Source: Alphaproteobacteria bacterium (GTDB lineage: Bacteria; Pseudomonadota; Alphaproteobacteria; CAAGCB01; CAG-977). Taken from it: DNA of 64,000 bases. The notes below the pieces were generated by a model. That model searched no databases, was not told the DNA's origin, and saw nothing but the letters and a program-made list of their open reading frames with translations. A program made the position numbers and the translations under genes. The stretch lies in the NCBI GenBank assembly GCA_017616015.1, contig JAFZYY010000024.1, forward strand, positions 124,001-188,000, given 5' to 3'. Positions 45,348-55,878 of this stretch are shown piece after piece. Position 1 is the stretch's first letter. Every line of letters starts with the position of its first letter.

Positions 45348-48011
45348 GTGCTGAAAATGAAAACCGCTGAAAAACCGCAAATGAAGTACCTGAAAGACTA
45401 TAAGAAACCGGATTTTAGAATTGATTCGGTCGATTTGGTCTTTGATTTGGACGAAGAAACAACACAGGTTGTCTCCACGCTTGAAATTTCGAGCGACTAT
45501 AATCGATCCGAAGGGGTGCGCCCGTTGGTTTTAGACGGCAATCATTTAACGTTTAAGCATATCAAAATGAACGGCCGGGAGTTGCCCGCCGATCAGTACG
45601 AAGTCGCCGAAAAAAGTCTGACCGTATTTAATCCGCCTGAAAAATTCACGCTGGAAATCGGTACGGAAATTCACCCGAAAGCCAATACGCGTCTGGAGGG
45701 ACTCTATTATTCCAACGGCGCTTTGTGTTCGCAAAACGAACCGGAAGGTTTCCGTTGCATCACGTATTATCTGGATCACCCCGACGTGATGAGTAGCTTT
45801 ACGACAACTTTAATTGCGGACAAGAAAAAGTACCCTATTTTGTTGTCGAACGGCAATCCGATTGAAAAGAAAGATTTGCCGAACGGCCGTCATCAGGTCA
45901 CATGGCAGGATCCGTTTAAAAAACCATGCTATCTGTTCGCAATCGTCGGCGGCGATCTGGCGTCTTTGCACGACACGTTTACGACAAAGTCCGGCCGTGA
46001 AATCAAGCTGGGCATCTATGTCGAACACGGTTATGAAAATCAGGCGTCCTTTGCTCTCGAATCTCTGAAAAGAGCGATGAAATGGGACGAAGACGTTTAC
46101 GGCCTGGAATACGATTTGGATTTGTTCAATATCGTTGCCGTGTCTTATTTCAACATGGGCGCTATGGAAAATAAGGGGCTGAACGTTTTTAACACTTCTT
46201 GCGCGCTGGTGAACAAAGACGTCGGAACGGACGTCGATTTCGCCCATATCGAAAGCGTGATCGCGCATGAATATTTCCATAACTGGTCAGGCGACCGCGT
46301 GACCGCGCGCGACTGGTTCAATCTGAGTCTGAAAGAGGGCTTTACCGTCTATCGCGATCAGGAATTTTCACGCGATATGCACTCGCGGTCGTTGAACAGA
46401 ATTAACGACGTTTTCGACCTGCGCACGCGTCAGTTCCCCGAAGACGCCGGGCCGTTGGCGCATTCCGTGCGTCCGGAATCCTATATGGAAATCAATAATT
46501 ATTACACGGCGACCGTGTACGATAAAGGCGCCGAAGTGATCCGCATGTACGAAAAGCTTTTCGGCAAAGAAAATTTTCTCAAAGGGTGCTCTTTGTACTT
46601 TACGCGCCACGACGGGCAGGCGGTGACGATTGATGATTTTGCCAAATGTCAGGAAGACGCGAATCATGCCGATTTGACTCAATTCAAACGCTGGTATTCT
46701 CAGGCGGGAACGCCGATCGTGACGGCAAAGGCAGACTATGACGCGGCGGCGAAAAAGTATACTCTGACGCTGAAGCAGGAAACAAAACCGACGCCGAACC
46801 AGCCCGAAAAATTGCCGTTCGTGATTCCTTTGGGAATCGGTCTGATCGGTTCCGACGGACAGGATATGCCGTTACAGTTGGAAGGCGAAGACAAAGCGCA
46901 GGGAACGTCGCGCATATTGGTGCTGGATCAGCCGGAACGGACGTTCGTTTTCGTTAACGTGCCGGAAAAGCCCGTTCTGTCGGCCAACCGCGATTTTACC
47001 GCGCCGATTCATTTCGTAATGGATTATACGGACGCGGAACGCATACATCAGGCGCGCTATGATTCAGATTTGTTCAACCGTTGGGACGCGTCTCAGCAGT
47101 ATGCCGTTAAATTGATGCTGAAGATGATCAAGGCCGTTCAGAACGGGGAAAAAGAACCGGCCGTTGATGAGGAGTACATCAGATTGTGGGGCGAATATCT
47201 GACGAATAAGAAACGGAATCCCGCCTATATTGCTCGTTTGATTACATTGCCGCAGGAAAACTATATGGCGGATAAAATGGACGTTGTCGACGTCGACGCG
47301 ATTCATCTCGTCCGCGCTCATTTGAAGAAAGTTTTGGCAACCCGATATAAACAAGAGCTGTTGGCCGTTTATCATGAAAATGATTTCGGCGATCAGCCTT
47401 ATAAGTTCACGACGGAAGACGCGGCCAGACGGTCTTTGAAAAACATGGCGCTGTCTTTTCTGGGAAATCTGGAGACGGAGGAAATCAATCAGATTGTTCG
47501 CCGGCAGTATCATTCGGCCAACAATATGTCGGACAAAATGGCGGCGATGAATATCTGCTCGAATTCCAAAGATCCGCAGCGCGATGAAATTCTGGAAGAT
47601 TTCTATCAGCACTATAAGCATGACGACGGTGTGGTCAACAAGTGGCTGTTCTCCTGTGCTTGCGCGGACAGACCCGATGCCGTTTCGGTTGTGCGCAAAC
47701 TGATGGAACACCCCGCGTTTAATATTAAAAATCCGAATAAACTGCGCTCGCTGATGGGCGGTTTTGCCTATAATCAGCCGGAATTCCACAAAGCGGACGG
47801 TTCCGGATACGCGTTGGCGGCGGAAATGGCTGTCAAAGTCGACGAATTCAACCCGCAGATGGCGTGCCATATGGTGCGGCCGATGATGCGGTGGAAGCGT
47901 TTTGACGAAAAGCGCCGGGAAATGATGAAAGCCGCTCTGGAAAAAGTTCTGGCCAAGCCGGGACTGTCCAGAAACGTTTACGAATTGGTGTCCAAATCGC
48001 TGGCGGAATAA
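45348..48011 (+). CDS. pepN: Aminopeptidase N, first copy
   Basis: The 887-residue product is an M1-family alanyl aminopeptidase of the size of E. coli PepN (870). It shows the exopeptidase motif GAMENKG and the zinc site HEYFH near residue 307 followed by the distal Glu in NLSLKEGFTVYRDQ. No signal peptide is present, so it acts in the cytoplasm on small peptides. The GTG at 45348 is chosen because AAAAGG is 6 bases upstream; an ATG 9 bases later is possible. A second full-length copy follows after a terminator. Confidence 0.94.
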   Translation: MLKMKTAEKPQMKYLKDYKKPDFRIDSVDLVFDLDEETTQVVSTLEISSDYNRSEGVRPLVLDGNHLTFKHIKMNGRELPADQYEVAEKSLTVFNPPEKFTLEIGTEIHPKANTRLEGLYYSNGALCSQNEPEGFRCITYYLDHPDVMSSFTTTLIADKKKYPILLSNGNPIEKKDLPNGRHQVTWQDPFKKPCYLFAIVGGDLASLHDTFTTKSGREIKLGIYVEHGYENQASFALESLKRAMKWDEDVYGLEYDLDLFNIVAVSYFNMGAMENKGLNVFNTSCALVNKDVGTDVDFAHIESVIAHEYFHNWSGDRVTARDWFNLSLKEGFTVYRDQEFSRDMHSRSLNRINDVFDLRTRQFPEDAGPLAHSVRPESYMEINNYYTATVYDKGAEVIRMYEKLFGKENFLKGCSLYFTRHDGQAVTIDDFAKCQEDANHADLTQFKRWYSQAGTPIVTAKADYDAAAKKYTLTLKQETKPTPNQPEKLPFVIPLGIGLIGSDGQDMPLQLEGEDKAQGTSRILVLDQPERTFVFVNVPEKPVLSANRDFTAPIHFVMDYTDAERIHQARYDSDLFNRWDASQQYAVKLMLKMIKAVQNGEKEPAVDEEYIRLWGEYLTNKKRNPAYIARLITLPQENYMADKMDVVDVDAIHLVRAHLKKVLATRYKQELLAVYHENDFGDQPYKFTTEDAARRSLKNMALSFLGNLETEEINQIVRRQYHSANNMSDKMAAMNICSNSKDPQRDEILEDFYQHYKHDDGVVNKWLFSCACADRPDAVSVVRKLMEHPAFNIKNPNKLRSLMGGFAYNQPEFHKADGSGYALAAEMAVKVDEFNPQMACHMVRPMMRWKRFDEKRREMMKAALEKVLAKPGLSRNVYELVSKSLAE

Positions 48012-48227: not shown

Positions 48228-51083
48228 ATGATGTCGGAAAATTCACCAAAGGTTAAATATCTGAAAGATTATAAAAAACCCGATTACAAAATTGAAGCCG
48301 TTCATTTGGATTTCGATTTGGACGAGGAAAACACTCAAGTTTCTTCCACGATGAAAATTAAAAGCGATTATGACGCTTCCACCGGCGAAGTCCGTCCGCT
48401 CCATTTGGACGGTGACGAGCTGACCCTGACGGGGATCGCGATTAACGGCCGTCCTTTGGAACCCGAAGAATACGTTGTTGACGATAAGGGACTGACGATT
48501 TTGAATCCGCCGAAGGAATTCGAATTGTCGATCGGAACGGAAATTCACCCGAAAGCGAATACAAAGCTGGAAGGGCTTTATGTGTCCAACGGTATGTTCT
48601 GCACGCAGTGCGAACCGGAAGGATTCCGCCGCATCACGTATTATCCCGATCACCCGGACTGCATGAGCGTCTTTACGACGACCATTCGCGCCGATAAGGA
48701 CAAATTGCCCTGCCTGTTGTCAAACGGCAACATGATTAAGGAAGAACAAATGGAAGACGGCAGAACGGCCGTAACCTGGTATGATCCGTTCCCGAAACCG
48801 TCTTATCTGTTCGCTCTGGTCGGCGGCGATCTGGACTACATCAACGATAAGTTCGTCACGATGTCCGGCCGCGAAGTGACTCTGGGCGTTTATGCCAACA
48901 AAGGCCAGAAAGACAAGCTGGGCTACACGATGGATTCCATTAAACGCTCCATGGCCTGGGACGAACAGGCTTTCGGACGCGAATACGATTTGGATTTGTT
49001 CAATCTGGTGGCGGTTTCCGATTTTAACCAGGGCGCCATGGAAAACAAAGGGCTGAATATTTTCAACAGCTCTTACGTGATTGCGGACGCCCATACGGCG
49101 ACGGACGAAGACTATGCCGGCATTGAAGGCGTTGTCGGCCATGAATATTTCCATAACTGGTCGGGCGACCGCGTGACGGTGCGCGACTGGTTCAACCTGA
49201 GCCTGAAAGAAGGGCTGACGGTTTACCGCGATCAGGAATTTTCGCGCGATATGCGTTCCCGTTCCGTGAACCGTATTGAAGATGTCGCCGCTTTGCGCGC
49301 CGGACAATTTGCGGAAGACGCCGGCCCGACCGCGCATGCCGTTCGTCCGGAATCTTATGTCGAAATCAATAACTTCTACACGTCGACGATTTACAACAAA
49401 GGCGCGGAAATCGTTCGTATGTACGAAAAGATGCTGGGCAAGGAAAAGTTCCGCGAAGCAAACGACCTGCATTTTTCGCGCAATGACGGCAAAGCCGTGA
49501 CGATTGATGATTACGCCAAGTGCATGGAAGATGTTTCCGGCATGGATTTGACTCAATTCAAGCGTTGGTATTCTCAGGCCGGTACGCCGTCCGTTTATGC
49601 CGAAGGCGTTTATGACGAAAAGACGCAGACATATACGCTGAAGCTGCGTCAGACGACAAAGCCGACGCCGGGACAGGAAACAAAGTTACCGTTTGTCATT
49701 CCGATGGAAATGGGACTGTTGGACAAAGACGGCAACGATATGCCGTTGCAGTTGGCCGGCGAAAAAGAGCCTCAGGGCACTTCCCGCGTCATGATTATGG
49801 ATCAGGACGAAGTGACGCTTACGTTCGTCAATGTTAAAGAAAAGCCTGTTTTGTCCGCTAACCGCGACTTTACGGCGCCGATCAATTTCCATATGGATTA
49901 CACGGACGCCGAGCGCGCTCATTTGATGGCGCACGATTCCGATCTGTTCAACCGTTGGGACGCGGCGCAGCAGTACGGCGTTCAGAAAATGCTGGAAATG
50001 GTGAAGGATATTCAGGCCGGCAAAGAACCCAAAGTGGACGAAGGATATTTGAACGCGCTGGGCTCTTATCTGAAAGATCCGTCTTTGGATAAGGCGTTTG
50101 TCGCAAAAGCGTTGGAATTGCCGAGCGAAAAATACATCGCCGATCAGATGGACGTTGTGGACGTTGACGCGGTGGCAAAGGCTCGCTCCATGGTCTCTAA
50201 GGCGTTTGTCGAACGTTTCGAAAAGGATCTGGTCAATATTTACGATTCTCTGAATGTGGAAAGGCCGTTTGAACCGGTTGCGAAAGACGCGGGCGAACGC
50301 GCTTTGAAGAATACGGCTCTGGCTTATCTGGCTTCTACGGAAAAACAGGAATATGCGGATCGCGTTATGGCGCAGTATGAAAGCGCTAACAACATGACCG
50401 ACCGCTTCGCCGCATTGAAAGTGGCGGCCGGTATGGAAGCAGGCAAGCCGATTGTCGCCGATTTCTACAACCGCTTTAAAGACGAAGAACTGGTCGTCAA
50501 CAAATGGCTGGGCGTTGTGGCTTCCGAAGGACTGGAAGGGGCAAAGAGCGCCGTCAATCACGAAGCTTTCGCGATTACGAACCCGAACAAAGTGCGCGCT
50601 GTTATGCGTCGTTTCTCGGGCAATCAGAAGGCTTTCCATGCCAAAGACGGTTCCGGATACGAATTTGTCGCCGATATGGTGCTGAAACTGGACGGCATCA
50701 ATCCGTTGGTTGCTGCTGATGTGGCGAAACCTTTGGCTTCATGGCGCCGTTTCGACCCCGAACGTCAGGCGATGATGAAGGGCGCTTTGGAAAAGATTCT
50801 GGAAAAACCGGGATTGTCCAAGAATGTGTACGAAGTCGTTTCCAAATCTTTGGGCGATACGGAAACAAAGAAAGCCAGAATTCTGGAAAACAAAGCCAAA
50901 TTGCAAAAACGCGCCAAGACGGACGCTTTCCTGAAACGCGAACCGTTGAAGGTCTTTGTCTCAGGTGCGCACGGCAAGGAAAGCGAACCGGTTCACGCCG
51001 CTTTATTGGAAGGGAAAAAGGCAAAAGTTGTTTCTTCTTCCGCGAACATTCAGGCGGCTCGCAACAAAGCTCAGGAACGCTAG
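48228..51083 (+). CDS. pepN: Aminopeptidase N, second copy with C-terminal extension
   Basis: The 951-residue product is collinear with the first copy from MKYLKDYKKP-like N-terminus to the SRNVYELVSKSL-like end, and it keeps GAMENKG, HEYFH near residue 304 and the distal Glu in LSLKEGLTVYRDQ. The residue before the zinc motif is Gly (VVGHEYFH) where the first copy has Ala. After the shared end it has about 75 extra residues, Lys/Ala-rich with an RAKTDAFLKREPLKVFVSG segment. The first 45 residues are nearly superposable in both. It has its own promoter candidate and terminator, so the two can be regulated separately. Confidence 0.94.
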   Translation: MMSENSPKVKYLKDYKKPDYKIEAVHLDFDLDEENTQVSSTMKIKSDYDASTGEVRPLHLDGDELTLTGIAINGRPLEPEEYVVDDKGLTILNPPKEFELSIGTEIHPKANTKLEGLYVSNGMFCTQCEPEGFRRITYYPDHPDCMSVFTTTIRADKDKLPCLLSNGNMIKEEQMEDGRTAVTWYDPFPKPSYLFALVGGDLDYINDKFVTMSGREVTLGVYANKGQKDKLGYTMDSIKRSMAWDEQAFGREYDLDLFNLVAVSDFNQGAMENKGLNIFNSSYVIADAHTATDEDYAGIEGVVGHEYFHNWSGDRVTVRDWFNLSLKEGLTVYRDQEFSRDMRSRSVNRIEDVAALRAGQFAEDAGPTAHAVRPESYVEINNFYTSTIYNKGAEIVRMYEKMLGKEKFREANDLHFSRNDGKAVTIDDYAKCMEDVSGMDLTQFKRWYSQAGTPSVYAEGVYDEKTQTYTLKLRQTTKPTPGQETKLPFVIPMEMGLLDKDGNDMPLQLAGEKEPQGTSRVMIMDQDEVTLTFVNVKEKPVLSANRDFTAPINFHMDYTDAERAHLMAHDSDLFNRWDAAQQYGVQKMLEMVKDIQAGKEPKVDEGYLNALGSYLKDPSLDKAFVAKALELPSEKYIADQMDVVDVDAVAKARSMVSKAFVERFEKDLVNIYDSLNVERPFEPVAKDAGERALKNTALAYLASTEKQEYADRVMAQYESANNMTDRFAALKVAAGMEAGKPIVADFYNRFKDEELVVNKWLGVVASEGLEGAKSAVNHEAFAITNPNKVRAVMRRFSGNQKAFHAKDGSGYEFVADMVLKLDGINPLVAADVAKPLASWRRFDPERQAMMKGALEKILEKPGLSKNVYEVVSKSLGDTETKKARILENKAKLQKRAKTDAFLKREPLKVFVSGAHGKESEPVHAALLEGKKAKVVSSSANIQAARNKAQER

Positions 51084-51098
51084 GTAACTTTTTTATTG

Positions 51099-51131
51099 AA
51101 CCGCCGGGGAATTTTCTCCGGCGGTTTATTA
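51099..51131 (+). terminator. Terminator after second pepN
   Basis: AACCGCCGG (51099-51107) and CCGGCGGTT (51118-51126) pair around a 10-base loop, followed by TATTATTTT. Confidence 0.78.
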
Positions 51132-51202: not shown

Positions 51203-52270
51203 ATGAAATACAAAGGTATTATTTTTCTGTCGGTTTTAGCGTTATTCTGTAGCACGGCGCAGGAAACTAAGGCGGCTCCTTCTCAAAAGAAGGCTCAAAA
51301 TATTTATACGCAGAAAAAGACCGAAAATAAGCCCAAATCTATTTGGGACGATGAAACGGCCGCTAACCCGTATTTTAAGGATCCTAAAAAAAAGAAAAAA
51401 GCTCCCGTCGTTAAAAAAGAAAAACCTAAAAAAGTTCAGGAAAAAGCATACAAAAAGCCCGTTTATACAGGGCCTAATCAAAAAGAAATAGCGCAAAACG
51501 CCATAAAAAAGGCGGAAGAGAATTTTAAAACCTTTTTTTCTTTCGGCAAATATGATCTGAAATACGGTCAGATTTCTTATAATGTGAACGGCGATGTCTT
51601 ATCCGTTTCCGATGTGACGATTAAAAGTATGGAAAAATTTAATGCGGCGCCGTATTTAATGAAAGCAGAGCAAATCATTCTCAGAAGCTTTAATGTCGGT
51701 GAAAAAAACGGCAAGCCGATGTTGAACGACGGGGAAATGATCGTTCGAAAGCTGGAACTTCCGGTATGGAATCAGAAATTTGTTAAAAAAGGAAAGGTGG
51801 ATATTGCTCAGCTGAGAATGAAAGGCGATATACCGGCTTATCTGAAAGCAAAAGGAGAGGGCAAGCTCAGCGCGCTTGAAGTTCGGGATTTACGTTCCGA
51901 AGCCATTATTAACGAAACGGTTCTGAATAACGTCGTCCGTTCCAAAATATTGTCCGCTTCTTCGGCATCGTTTTATGACGCGGAAGTAAAGAAAGATCTT
52001 CTGGAAGCTCTGAAACAGCAAACGATAGACGGGTTGAATTTCAGCTCTGCTGCCATTAACGGAAAAGAAATTTCCACGAAAGACGGCGCTGCTTCCGCTA
52101 TGACGTCTTATTCGGCCAGGATTTTAAATACGGATTTGGTTTTAGGCGCCAGACTGGAGGCAAAAAAGGACAAGCCTAATCCTTCTCCCGATTTGAATTT
52201 GCTGAAGCAAAACGCCGCCGAAAACAAAGCGGCAATCGCGGCAACGGAAACGGAAGTACAACCGAAATAA
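51203..52270 (+). CDS. Secreted Lys-rich protein of unknown function
   Basis: The ATG at 51203 is preferred over an overlapping TTG three bases upstream; AAAGGG lies before it. The 355-residue product has a signal peptide (residues 1-25, ending ETKAA), then about 65 basic, Lys/Pro-rich residues, and a strand-rich domain from about residue 105 on that repeats a DLKYGQISYNVNGDVLSVSDV-type pattern seen in periplasmic lipid-binding-like folds. I do not recognise a family. It is the first gene of the operon with the pentapeptide-repeat and VirD4-like genes, 11 bases upstream. Confidence 0.7.
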   Translation: MKYKGIIFLSVLALFCSTAQETKAAPSQKKAQNIYTQKKTENKPKSIWDDETAANPYFKDPKKKKKAPVVKKEKPKKVQEKAYKKPVYTGPNQKEIAQNAIKKAEENFKTFFSFGKYDLKYGQISYNVNGDVLSVSDVTIKSMEKFNAAPYLMKAEQIILRSFNVGEKNGKPMLNDGEMIVRKLELPVWNQKFVKKGKVDIAQLRMKGDIPAYLKAKGEGKLSALEVRDLRSEAIINETVLNNVVRSKILSASSASFYDAEVKKDLLEALKQQTIDGLNFSSAAINGKEISTKDGAASAMTSYSARILNTDLVLGARLEAKKDKPNPSPDLNLLKQNAAENKAAIAATETEVQPK

Positions 52271-52281
52271 AAGAAACAGGC

Positions 52282-53613
52282 ATGGAAAACACGGAAAACG
52301 ACGGGAAAAAGGAAACTCAAGGCGTTTACAGCGCTCTGACAAAGCGTCCCGATCCGAAAGTGGTCGATACGTCCGATGCCAATATCAGTTATGTCGCCGG
52401 CGTCCGTATCGTTGATGAAATTCAGCAACGCAAGGATCGCTTTAACGGTTGGGAAAAAGATGAAAACGCTCAACTTGTCGTCAGTTTTCTGGCTCAGGGG
52501 GAATTCAATAAATTTGTCGGCGCCGATTTATCCGAAGTCGATTTTTCGGGCGCGGATCTGTCTTCGATTAATCTGCAAAATGCCGATTTAAAAAACGCCA
52601 ATCTGTCCGGCGTCGATTTACGCGGCGCCGATTTGCGCGGTGCCGATTTACGCGGAGTCAATCTGGAAGAAGCCGATTTGGAAGGCGCTAATCTGGAAGG
52701 CGCTCTGCTGGACGGCGCGTATTTGAAAAACGCCAAGATCATCGGCGCGAAACTGGCTAAACAAGCGCTGAACGAATTGGAAAAAATGCAACAGATGCAA
52801 CGCGATGCCGAAGAAGGCAAGCTTGATCTGCGAAAAGTTAATCTGAAATATCTTGATTTGCGCAAACTTGATTTACGCGGCGTCGATCTGACGGGCGTGG
52901 ATCTGTCCGGCGTCAATCTGGTCGGCGTGAATTTAAGCGGCGTTAAGATAGATCAAAAGTATTTGGACGGAACGTATTTGTTTCAGCAGGCTGCCGGCAG
53001 AAAAGTCGATATTAAAAAAGGGAATATCGCGGGACTGGATTTAACAAGCGCCAATCAAATGAAAGCCAGTATGCTGGAACTGGAGATTTTGCGGCGCAAG
53101 CGGCTGACCAATCAGGAAGAAGAACAAAAGCATCTGGAAGAAATCAACAAAATCGCAGAGGAAAAACAGGTTAAAAACGAGCAGGATTTGTTGCGGAAAC
53201 GCCAACAGGAGGAATCCTCGAATCCTATGCCGGAACAGTCCGAAGACGGTTTATCCCGCGAATTGGAGTTTTTAAGATCCCGCCGTTTAAACCAACCGTC
53301 GGTCGAAGAAATGAAGGCGCGTCTGCAGGACGTCGTTTTGGAAAACCACGGCGCTTTGAAAAGCGGCGCCAAAAGTTTGGTGACTCATCGCCCGCGCCGC
53401 AAAGAAGAGTTGCCGCCCAGCAAGTACGACTTCCCGATACTTTATCCCGTTGATGAAGAGGAAAAGGATAAAGAAGAAAAGAAGACCGCTGTTCAGGAAG
53501 CTGTCAAATTTGCCGGAAAGGTCGTTCAAAAAGTCATTCAGAAAGTTTCTTTTCCGCGTCGGCAGAAATCTCGACTGCGCGTTAAACGCCAAAGACAAAA
53601 GCAAAGGAGTTAG
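52282..53613 (+). CDS. Pentapeptide-repeat protein with charged C-terminal tail
   Basis: The 443-residue product has pentapeptide repeats in two blocks: residues about 78-155 (ADLSEVDFSGADL, NADLKNANLSGVDL and so on) and 178-230 (LDLRGVDLTGVDLSGVNL), which should form a right-handed beta-helix. The two blocks are split by a helical KQALNELEKMQQMQRDAEEGK spacer. Residues about 255-443 are charged, coiled-coil-like, and end in a very basic segment. There is no signal peptide. The start lies 11 bases after the secreted protein gene and the stop 3 bases before the VirD4-like gene, so an adaptor or scaffold role for the coupling ATPase is likely but unproven. Confidence 0.88.
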   Translation: MENTENDGKKETQGVYSALTKRPDPKVVDTSDANISYVAGVRIVDEIQQRKDRFNGWEKDENAQLVVSFLAQGEFNKFVGADLSEVDFSGADLSSINLQNADLKNANLSGVDLRGADLRGADLRGVNLEEADLEGANLEGALLDGAYLKNAKIIGAKLAKQALNELEKMQQMQRDAEEGKLDLRKVNLKYLDLRKLDLRGVDLTGVDLSGVNLVGVNLSGVKIDQKYLDGTYLFQQAAGRKVDIKKGNIAGLDLTSANQMKASMLELEILRRKRLTNQEEEQKHLEEINKIAEEKQVKNEQDLLRKRQQEESSNPMPEQSEDGLSRELEFLRSRRLNQPSVEEMKARLQDVVLENHGALKSGAKSLVTHRPRRKEELPPSKYDFPILYPVDEEEKDKEEKKTAVQEAVKFAGKVVQKVIQKVSFPRRQKSRLRVKRQRQKQRS

Positions 53614-53616
53614 GAG

Positions 53617-55878
53617 ATGGATAGATATTCTATGCTTCCCTCCCGCAGGGATCCTAACTTTGCAGAACATTACAGAGCATTGGATTGGATTATTTTAGGG
53701 TGTATCTATTCGGCTCTTGTAGCGTTTCTTTTTTCGTTAATCGCTTATCCTTTAGCGCACATGATTGCTCATAATTTTTCGATCCAGTCGTGGGAAAGCG
53801 TCAAACGTTATTTCGTCTATCTGAAGTCCCACCCGCATTATTATTTCAAAAGTTATTTCCGTTGGATATTAACTTTTTTTGAGGATCCGTTTCAGAGTTT
53901 TGCTGTATGGATTCCCGCCATGCCGCTGTTTATTTTCATGGGCGGCTGTATCATAGCGGTTAAAACAAATCCGTATTATTTTGTTCAGTTGGATCAGGGC
54001 GACGGGCGTCTGGCCGATGAACGCGATGTGAAAAAAATGGGACTGTGGAACGGAATGTCGTTTGTTCTGGGGCTGTGGAACGACAAACATCTTTTGCGCA
54101 TGAACAATTTTATGTCGTTGCTTATCATTGGAGCTCCCGACAGCGGCAAAACGTCGGGCGTCGTTGTCCCCAGTATTTTGGCTAATGACGATAAAAGCAT
54201 GGTCATTAACGACATGAAAGGCGAATTGTTCGAATTGACGGGCGGTCATCGCGCGGAGTTGGGGCCGGTTTTTAATGTAGACTTTGTCAGATCCGATGAT
54301 CCGGAAAACGGCGTTTTTTGGCCGACTTGGAATCCGTTGAGCGATATGGATTTGCCTCCGCCGTCTCCGGGCAGACAAGGATATATAGGCGGTCTGGTAT
54401 ACTTTTTATTGGGAGACGGGCCGACGGGAACAGACCCGTACTGGATTAAATCCGGCCGCGCGGCGCTGGAAGGTCTTATCAATTACATTTGCGACAAATG
54501 CGAACAGGCGCGCGCGAACGATTACTTTTTGCAGCGTTTTTACGAAGAGGCGGTCGACGAAGAGGATTACGAAGTCCTTGAAACGTACTATGCCTCGATG
54601 GACAAAAGCGTCGCCGTAAAACAGGCGCTGAACAACGTTCAGAATAGAACGATGACGTTTAAAAACTACCTGCCGATCGGTAAATGGGATCCGATTCCCG
54701 AAGCATGGATCGGTCGTCAGGCCAGTTTTCCGCTTTTAATGGACTTTATCACAAAACAGCAACTTGATATGTCTTCGGAATTAAGGGCTAGACGCGATGC
54801 CGGAGATCCGGTCGCTTTTAAAACCGATATCTGGACAAAGATTTTATCCGACATCATCGAAGAAACTACATATTTCGGGTATAACCGCCGCGCTTTGGTC
54901 GAAATCAGTCAGATTGCCGCTTTACCAAAGTCTCAAAGGGCTTCGGTGATGTCTATGGCGCTGTCGGGATTGGCTCCGTTTAAAAACTCCGTTATCCGTT
55001 CTCGTATGGCCTCCAGCGATTTCGGCAGCGTTCAGATGCGCGGCATTAAAAATCCGGTCACGGGAAATTGGGAGCCGGTGACATTTTATCTGGGTTGCCC
55101 GATAGAACGCATGTCAAATACCGTGATGAAAATGTTCGTCAATATGTATTCCGGAACTCTGACGATTTTCGACGTATCCGAAGGACCTTGCGGGCCTTTC
55201 CCCGTTTTGTATGTGCTTGACGAATATCACAATATGTCGGAATTCCATGTCGCCGACGCAATCGGTATCGGGTTGGCCAAGCATTACGCCTTTTTGCTGA
55301 CTTGCCAGGATTTATCTCAGCTGTCCAGCGCTTATGGCGGCGAGTTAGAAACGATTATCGGTAATACGGGCGCGAAAATTTTCATGCGTTGCAACAATCG
55401 TTCGACGGCTGAACGCATTAACGCGCTGATGGAAAAGAAAACGTTCGTCGTCTTTTCCGAAAGCCGCGATGAAGGCATCGGTTCGGGAACATCTATATTT
55501 ACTCCGAAAAGCATCAGTTATGGCACGGTAGGCTATTCGATTATTTCCAATTCTTCAATTATGAATATGCCGTTCGGACGGCAATACGCTTTGATCCAAA
55601 AGCATCACAATCGGCCGATTAAGCTGAAATCTCCTGTCTATTTTAAAGACAGAAATATGGTTAAGGAAACCAAAAAAGAGGTTCCGCTTCCGTTGCCGCT
55701 CAGCATTTACAACCAGCGCAACGAAGAGGATAAATTGCCGCCGCCGGCCGATATGTCCGTCGAACCTGAGTATATCCAAGCCAAAAAAATAGCTGATCGC
55801 GAAAAAGAAGAAATGGAAAATCAAGAAGAAAATGAAATAAATGAAGCCGATGTCGAACAGACAGCCGACGATGTTTAG
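53617..55878 (+). CDS. VirD4/TraG-family type IV coupling ATPase
   Basis: The 753-residue product has two N-terminal membrane segments (residues about 24-50 and 97-115), a Walker A GAPDSGKTS at 172-180 and Walker B PVLYVLDEYHNM near 530, with KSMVINDMKGELFE, FNVDFVRSDDPENG and SFLLTCQDLSQL-like segments of coupling proteins. Residues about 660-753 form a charged extension beyond the usual VirD4 end, ending in Glu/Asn-rich sequence. Such proteins carry DNA or proteins to a type IV secretion channel. No VirB homologue, relaxase or transfer origin is in the window. Confidence 0.92.
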   Translation: MDRYSMLPSRRDPNFAEHYRALDWIILGCIYSALVAFLFSLIAYPLAHMIAHNFSIQSWESVKRYFVYLKSHPHYYFKSYFRWILTFFEDPFQSFAVWIPAMPLFIFMGGCIIAVKTNPYYFVQLDQGDGRLADERDVKKMGLWNGMSFVLGLWNDKHLLRMNNFMSLLIIGAPDSGKTSGVVVPSILANDDKSMVINDMKGELFELTGGHRAELGPVFNVDFVRSDDPENGVFWPTWNPLSDMDLPPPSPGRQGYIGGLVYFLLGDGPTGTDPYWIKSGRAALEGLINYICDKCEQARANDYFLQRFYEEAVDEEDYEVLETYYASMDKSVAVKQALNNVQNRTMTFKNYLPIGKWDPIPEAWIGRQASFPLLMDFITKQQLDMSSELRARRDAGDPVAFKTDIWTKILSDIIEETTYFGYNRRALVEISQIAALPKSQRASVMSMALSGLAPFKNSVIRSRMASSDFGSVQMRGIKNPVTGNWEPVTFYLGCPIERMSNTVMKMFVNMYSGTLTIFDVSEGPCGPFPVLYVLDEYHNMSEFHVADAIGIGLAKHYAFLLTCQDLSQLSSAYGGELETIIGNTGAKIFMRCNNRSTAERINALMEKKTFVVFSESRDEGIGSGTSIFTPKSISYGTVGYSIISNSSIMNMPFGRQYALIQKHHNRPIKLKSPVYFKDRNMVKETKKEVPLPLPLSIYNQRNEEDKLPPPADMSVEPEYIQAKKIADREKEEMENQEENEINEADVEQTADDV

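What the first reader, a model, noticed from the sequence alone, without database searches (positions are those of the whole stretch)
51203..55878. Orphan VirD4-like coupling ATPase in an operon with a pentapeptide-repeat protein and a secreted protein
Spacings of 11 and 3 bases make this one operon. The ATPase has intact Walker motifs and membrane anchors but no VirB genes, relaxase or oriT nearby. A pentapeptide beta-helix with a charged coiled-coil tail is an unusual partner and could be a cytosolic substrate adaptor; the first gene could be a periplasmic partner. It may represent an undescribed coupling complex serving a type IV system encoded elsewhere, or one with a different purpose.
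Basis: partly seen in the sequence, partly recalled or inferred. Interest (0 to 1): 0.7.

Follow-up and report, generated by a model that had tools for sequence, protein, structure and literature searches.

The report
Second coupling ATPase of dispersed T4SS
The three genes are real and are not an orphan: two of them form a conserved second "loading dock" (a coupling ATPase plus a pentapeptide-repeat partner) for a type IV secretion machine whose other parts are scattered over the chromosome of these uncultured, mostly gut-derived Alphaproteobacteria.

Summary
The trio is in the sequence as described. A strong terminator separates it from the upstream gene. It is not an orphan. The same genome encodes VirB2/3/4, two VirB8-like proteins, VirB9, a 2521-aa VirB10, VirB11, VirB6/TrbL-like proteins, a secretin/PilO/PilQ/PilR set and a second VirD4-like ATPase (T4CP-B), on three other contigs. 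In 289 Alphaproteobacteria genomes, 23 of 24 with this T4CP type also carry the matching VirB4. T4CP-A (window) and T4CP-B are two clades from one old duplication, rooted on plasmid VirB/D4 systems. Lineages with one T4CP keep it beside virB8-11 or pil genes. T4CP-A lies directly 3' of a pentapeptide-repeat protein in most genomes of five families. The first gene is confined to the window's family. T4CP-B is invariant at its ATPase motifs. T4CP-A evolves faster and has lost Walker-B Glu in several lineages, though not in the window. The best reading is a paralogous coupling module whose pentapeptide protein is a dedicated partner (adaptor), with the rival that it is the module's own substrate, because its C-terminus is always basic like T4SS signals. 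No interaction was tested. This is a new variant of a known kind.

The parts
51097..51128 (+). terminator-like hairpin (14 pairs, then TTATTTT) between pepN and the trio
   Evidence: sequence
51203..52270 (+). gene 1: 355 aa, predicted exported; beta-rich core with weak LptA/LptC-like similarity; found only in the window's family
52282..53613 (+). gene 2: pentapeptide-repeat protein, 443 aa, no TM; two repeat blocks split by a conserved helix-like insert; basic C-terminus
52507..52761 (+). first pentapeptide block (about residues 76-160)
52762..52821 (+). insert between the repeat blocks (QALNELEKMQQMQRDAEEGK), present in orthologues of other families with varied sequence
52822..52956 (+). second pentapeptide block (LDLRKVNLKYLDLRKLDLRGVDL...), among the best conserved parts across families
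53551..53610 (+). basic C-terminal 20 residues, net +10; net positive in 17 of 17 orthologues
53617..55878 (+). gene 3: T4CP-A, VirD4-family coupling ATPase, 753 aa
53674..53772 (+). T4CP-A hydrophobic segment 1 (residues 20-52)
53896..53967 (+). T4CP-A hydrophobic segment 2 (residues 94-117)
54130..54153 (+). T4CP-A Walker A GAPDSGKT (residues 172-179)
55204..55224 (+). T4CP-A Walker B VLYVLDE (ends at residues D535-E536)
55654..55875 (+). T4CP-A acidic C-terminal tail, net -12

Best explanation
penta + T4CP-A are a second, paralogous coupling module of one chromosomal VirB/D4-type T4SS whose genes are scattered. T4CP-A descends from an early duplication of the coupling ATPase; T4CP-B, with its own small partners, remained the strictly conserved coupling protein. 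T4CP-A sits in the inner membrane by two TM helices and uses ATP in the window's lineage. The pentapeptide protein is its dedicated soluble partner: a rigid beta-helix with a basic tail that docks near the ATPase (possibly on acidic C-terminal tails) and presents or selects a subset of protein substrates, as the auxiliary subunits of the Legionella coupling complex do. Shown: presence, conservation, gene order, co-occurrence with the T4SS, one duplication, motif conservation. Inferred: physical partnership, tail docking, substrate selection. Gene 1 is a lineage-specific, probably periplasmic add-on.
For: Same genome has VirB4, TrbI/VirB10, CagX/VirB9, VirB11, VirB2, TrbL and T4CP-B. T4CP-A in 12/12 and T4CP-B in 11/12 genomes of the order. 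23 of 24 class genomes with this T4CP type have the matching VirB4; the 24th is 78% complete. Penta is directly 5' of T4CP-A in nine genomes of four further families. In a scan with the penta profile, 16 genomes score 181 bits or more and the next protein 92; all 16 are T4CP genomes, three of them not used to build the profile. Lineages with one T4CP have it beside VirB8-11 (L102, L103) or on one stretch with PilO/Q/R (L100). Tree rooted on plasmid VirB/D4: A 100/100, B 100/99, A+B 89/82; core parts match the Erythrobacter plasmid system in the order virB2-3-4-8-9-10-11-D4. Precedent for coupling-complex subunits encoded away from the main cluster: DotY/DotZ (PMC7280309).
Against: No interaction, expression or secretion data. 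T4CP-B already has its own conserved neighbours. In G270 penta survives without a detected T4CP-A, and in G079 the two lie on different contigs, so the partnership is not absolute. ATPase motifs decay in several T4CP-A lineages. The class genomes are related to each other, so co-occurrence counts are not independent. The AlphaFold model of T4CP-A failed (pLDDT 40).
Confidence: 0.5

Rival explanations
1. The pentapeptide protein is itself a substrate (effector or carrier) exported by T4CP-A: its basic C-terminus is the secretion signal, and the ATPase was kept to export it.
For: C-terminal 20 residues net positive in 17/17 orthologues although that region otherwise diverges; the window's tail is RLRVKRQRQKQRS. 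Basic, Arg-rich C-termini are a known feature of VirB/D4 substrates (own knowledge). A Rickettsia protein whose only visible feature is a small pentapeptide repeat (cREM-4) is one of the proteins reported to interact with the coupling protein RvhD4 (PMC11077975).
Against: It is conserved one per genome with its ATPase across families, unlike most effectors; its repeat core and insert are conserved like a machine part; G270 keeps it without a detected T4CP-A.
Confidence: 0.25
2. T4CP-A is mainly a regulatory or assembly paralogue that joins T4CP-B (for example in mixed rings), and penta is a structural scaffold rather than a substrate selector.
For: T4CP-B is invariant at ATPase motifs while T4CP-A changes Walker-B Glu to Asp or Asn in seven of 17 aligned sequences and loses other motifs in three; T4CP-A branch lengths are longer between the same genome pairs; G270 appears to have lost T4CP-A.
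Against: The window's T4CP-A keeps every motif and is under purifying selection; nothing here shows mixed rings.
Confidence: 0.15
3. The module serves DNA transfer (mobilisation of an integrated element) rather than protein export.
For: T4CP family; a relaxase gene exists on contig C4; plasmid relatives are conjugation-type systems with MobA/MobL relaxases.
Against: That relaxase lies on another contig with no T4CP beside it; the pair is vertically inherited among housekeeping genes.
Confidence: 0.07

Closest known systems
VirB/D4 conjugation-type systems of sphingomonad megaplasmids (Erythrobacter aureus NZ_CP031358, Sphingosinicella NZ_CP035502)
   Same: Homologous VirB2, 3, 4, 8, 9, 10, 11 and D4 (VirB4 35.5% over 800 aa; VirB11 40%; T4CP-B 36%, T4CP-A 27%)
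   Different: Plasmids: one cluster, one T4CP, a MobA/MobL relaxase, no annotated pentapeptide partner next to the T4CP. Here: chromosomal, dispersed, two T4CPs, a pil/secretin set.
Legionella Dot/Icm type IV coupling complex (DotL/M/N/Y/Z with IcmSW)
   Same: Coupling ATPase with a tail and dedicated soluble partners, some encoded away from the main cluster (PMC7280309); T4CP-B's 3' neighbour has a weak HNH-like match (pyocin AP41, E 0.047), a fold also reported for DotN (own knowledge)
   Different: No sequence match to DotM or DotN in the PDB search; VirB9/10/11 are VirB-type and DotB only weakly matched; no pentapeptide subunit known there.
Rickettsiales vir homologue (rvh) T4SS
   Same: Dispersed chromosomal VirB/D4 system in small-genome Alphaproteobacteria; a pentapeptide protein linked to RvhD4 (PMC11077975)
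   Different: The duplicated part here is the coupling protein; the VirB4 search found one copy; a VirD4 model (PRK13897) scores T4CP-A at 82 bits against a cut-off of 728.
Pentapeptide accessory proteins of type VI secretion (Burkholderia glumae)
   Same: Pentapeptide protein encoded with a secretion system and affecting its function (PMC8747328)
   Different: Different secretion system; no sequence relation tested.

Membership tests
VirD4-type coupling protein (T4CP) | PF02534 T4SS-DNA_transf above curated cut-off | tested here: met
   125.5 bits against 20.1
VirD4-type coupling protein (T4CP) | N-terminal membrane anchor and intact Walker A/B | tested here: met
   two hydrophobic segments; GAPDSGKT and YVLDE
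VirD4-type coupling protein (T4CP) | encoded in a genome with VirB4 and a core T4SS | tested here: met
VirD4-type coupling protein (T4CP) | hexameric ATPase that binds substrates | not testable with these tools
   AlphaFold model pLDDT 40
Conjugative coupling protein | T4CP gene next to a relaxase gene | tested here: not met
   the only relaxase found with PF03432 is on contig C4 and none lies beside the trio; other relaxase families and oriT were not searched genome-wide
Dot/Icm coupling complex | DotM and DotN homologues beside the coupling ATPase | tested here: inconclusive
   T4CP-B neighbours: TM protein without DotM match; HNH-like protein without DotN match
Pentapeptide-repeat protein | PF00805 above cut-off | tested here: met
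   124.4 bits against 20.2
Rickettsiales rvh T4SS | duplicated VirB4 with one VirD4 | tested here: not met
   one VirB4 found, two VirD4; the definition is from own knowledge
LptA/LptC-like periplasmic protein (gene 1) | OstA-like beta-taco fold over the core | tested here: inconclusive
   Foldseek best E 1e-3, VIA Z about 6, 5-11% identity; JlpA Z 8.6

The most novel reading that the evidence does not exclude
A T4SS with two paralogous coupling ATPases that work as separate loading docks: T4CP-B with its own partners for one substrate class, and T4CP-A with a pentapeptide beta-helix subunit for another, making the pentapeptide fold a new kind of coupling-complex subunit.
Probability: 0.35. 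Interest if true: 0.8.

Novelty: new variant of a known kind. Interest (0 to 1): 0.6.

Why it matters
How a T4SS sorts different substrates is an open question. A lineage that kept two coupling ATPases from one ancient duplication, each with its own conserved neighbours, is a natural experiment for it. It would also add the pentapeptide beta-helix to known coupling-complex partners and describes a chromosomal T4SS in uncultured, mostly gut- and rumen-derived Alphaproteobacteria for which I found no description in the papers searched.

Tried and rejected
Orphan status: rejected by own-genome searches. Remnant of an integrated element: rejected by conserved housekeeping neighbours. Gene 1 as part of the conserved core: rejected, absent next to penta in other families. 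AlphaFold of T4CP-A from 8 sequences failed (pLDDT 40) and was not used for a fold search. A phmmer search and a profile search of T4CP-A against PDB sequences gave nothing. DotM and DotN were sought by profile without a match. Literature searches for pentapeptide plus coupling protein, and for T4SS in gut Alphaproteobacteria, found no description of this pair; the library lacks most subscription journals. This T4CP type was not found outside Alphaproteobacteria in 397 genomes of the phylum at E 1e-60, a small sample.

Full report
Check. The three ORFs are at the stated coordinates with gaps of 11 and 3 bases. The ATPase is a clear VirD4-family protein (PF02534) with Walker A, Walker B and two N-terminal hydrophobic segments. 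The middle protein is a pentapeptide-repeat protein without TM segments. The first is predicted to be exported and has no family match. A strong terminator-like hairpin at 51097-51128 closes the upstream aminopeptidase gene, so the trio is probably its own transcription unit.

Not an orphan. The window is on contig C8 of a 2.09-Mb draft genome in 34 contigs. Searches of that genome found VirB4 on C22, a second VirD4-like ATPase on C12, and VirB10 and VirB9 on C31. Reading those loci showed on C22 VirB2, a VirB3-like protein, VirB4 and a row of exported proteins, divergent from PilL/TcpQ, PilN secretin, PilO, a protein in PilP position, PilQ and PilR (TcpQ, secretin, PilO and VirB2 rest on Pfam matches). 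C12 has T4CP-B with two TM proteins and three VirB6/TrbL-like proteins, one of which matches Pfam TrbL. C31 has VirB11, a 2521-aa VirB10 with 17-residue repeats, VirB9 and two VirB8-like ORFs. In G032, virB8, virB4-3-2 and pilL-N-O-P-Q share one 20-kb stretch, so these belong to one system.

Conservation. All seven related loci with sequence upstream of T4CP-A, from 59 to 84% identity in the ATPase, keep the trio; the eighth is truncated. In the order, 12 of 12 genomes have T4CP-A (in G003 split over two contigs) and 11 of 12 have T4CP-B. In 289 Alphaproteobacteria genomes 24 have this T4CP type, and 23 of these have the matching VirB4; the exception is 78% complete. PAP_PilO was found in 11 of the 24. 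In nine genomes of four further families T4CP-A lies directly after a pentapeptide protein. A profile of that protein separates 16 genomes (181 bits or more) from all other pentapeptide proteins (92 or less), and all 16 carry this T4CP type. Three of the 16 were not in the profile. Of these, G060 is broken at contig ends, G079 has the two genes on different contigs, and G270 keeps penta at its family's usual place but shows no T4CP-A there or in a whole-genome search. So the link is strong but not absolute. Gene 1 was seen only in the window's family.

Origin. A tree of T4CPs rooted on two sphingomonad megaplasmid proteins gives T4CP-A (100/100) and T4CP-B (100/99) as separate clades that join at 89/82; G021/G030 and G284/G078, in which only one protein of this type was found, branch outside them (and with another root). 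In G021 and G030 that T4CP is next to VirB11, VirB10, VirB9 and VirB8-like genes, and in G284 it is near PilO, PilQ and PilR. The Erythrobacter plasmid carries virB2-3-4-8-9-10-11-D4 in one cluster, with detectable homology to each part here. The simplest history, an inference, is a conjugation-type system that became chromosomal, spread out, and had its coupling ATPase duplicated.

Two different constraints. T4CP-B keeps APPGTGKT, LFVLDE and GQDLGQ in all 15 sequences of its clade. T4CP-A varies in Walker A, has Asp or Asn for the Walker-B Glu in seven of the 17 sequences that cover it, and in the family of G057/G179 has lost several motifs. The window's own T4CP-A keeps all of them and is under purifying selection. 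Branch lengths between the same pairs of genomes are longer for T4CP-A than T4CP-B (for G161/G254 about 0.75 against 0.27).

Mechanism. The pentapeptide protein is soluble, has two repeat blocks split by an insert, and ends in a basic stretch in all 17 orthologues; T4CP-A ends in an acidic tail in most, but not in the two of family f38. Docking of the basic tail on acidic coupling-protein tails is plausible, but several T4CP-B tails are acidic too, so specificity is not shown. Auxiliary subunits that bind a coupling-protein tail are known for Legionella, two of them encoded outside the main cluster (PMC7280309). The substrate reading is also well founded: basic C-termini are typical of VirB/D4 substrates (own knowledge), and a Rickettsia protein with a small pentapeptide repeat is reported to interact with RvhD4 (PMC11077975). 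I put the partner or adaptor reading first because the protein is kept one per genome over family-level distances.

Gene 1. The AlphaFold model (pLDDT 72) has a beta-rich core with weak similarity to LptA/LptC and JlpA. This is too weak for a name.

Limits. The genomes used for the survey are unnamed and partly draft, and their relatedness inflates the co-occurrence counts. Only two structures were predicted, from 8-row alignments, and one failed. No functional data exist.

Noticed in passing
L021:10391-17956 (-), own genome contig C31: 2521-aa VirB10 (TrbI domain at the C-terminus) with degenerate repeats of 17 residues over much of its length; the VirB10 ORFs in G021 and in the Erythrobacter plasmid are about 530 aa.
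   Followed up: partly
L014:15872-19536 and L016:2005-6308, contig C22: TcpQ/PilL, PilN secretin, PilO, PilQ and PilR genes divergent from virB2-3-4; the same arrangement in G032 (L122), and three pilin-like ORFs follow PilR in G048 (L123).
   Followed up: partly
L015:6245-7303 (-), next to T4CP-B: Conserved neighbour of T4CP-B with a weak match to the HNH nuclease of pyocin AP41 (E 0.047); possibly a DotN-like subunit.
   Followed up: partly
window 45348-48011 and 48228-51083: Two adjacent, diverged aminopeptidase N genes; the second has a C-terminal extension of about 70 residues.
   Followed up: no
L023:5573-6616 (-), contig C4: Relaxase gene (PF03432) without a T4CP beside it, perhaps part of a small mobilisable element.
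   Followed up: no
L118:9494-12626 (-), genome G270: Penta kept behind a lipoprotein gene as in G179, but T4CP-A is not there: an apparent natural loss.
   Followed up: partly
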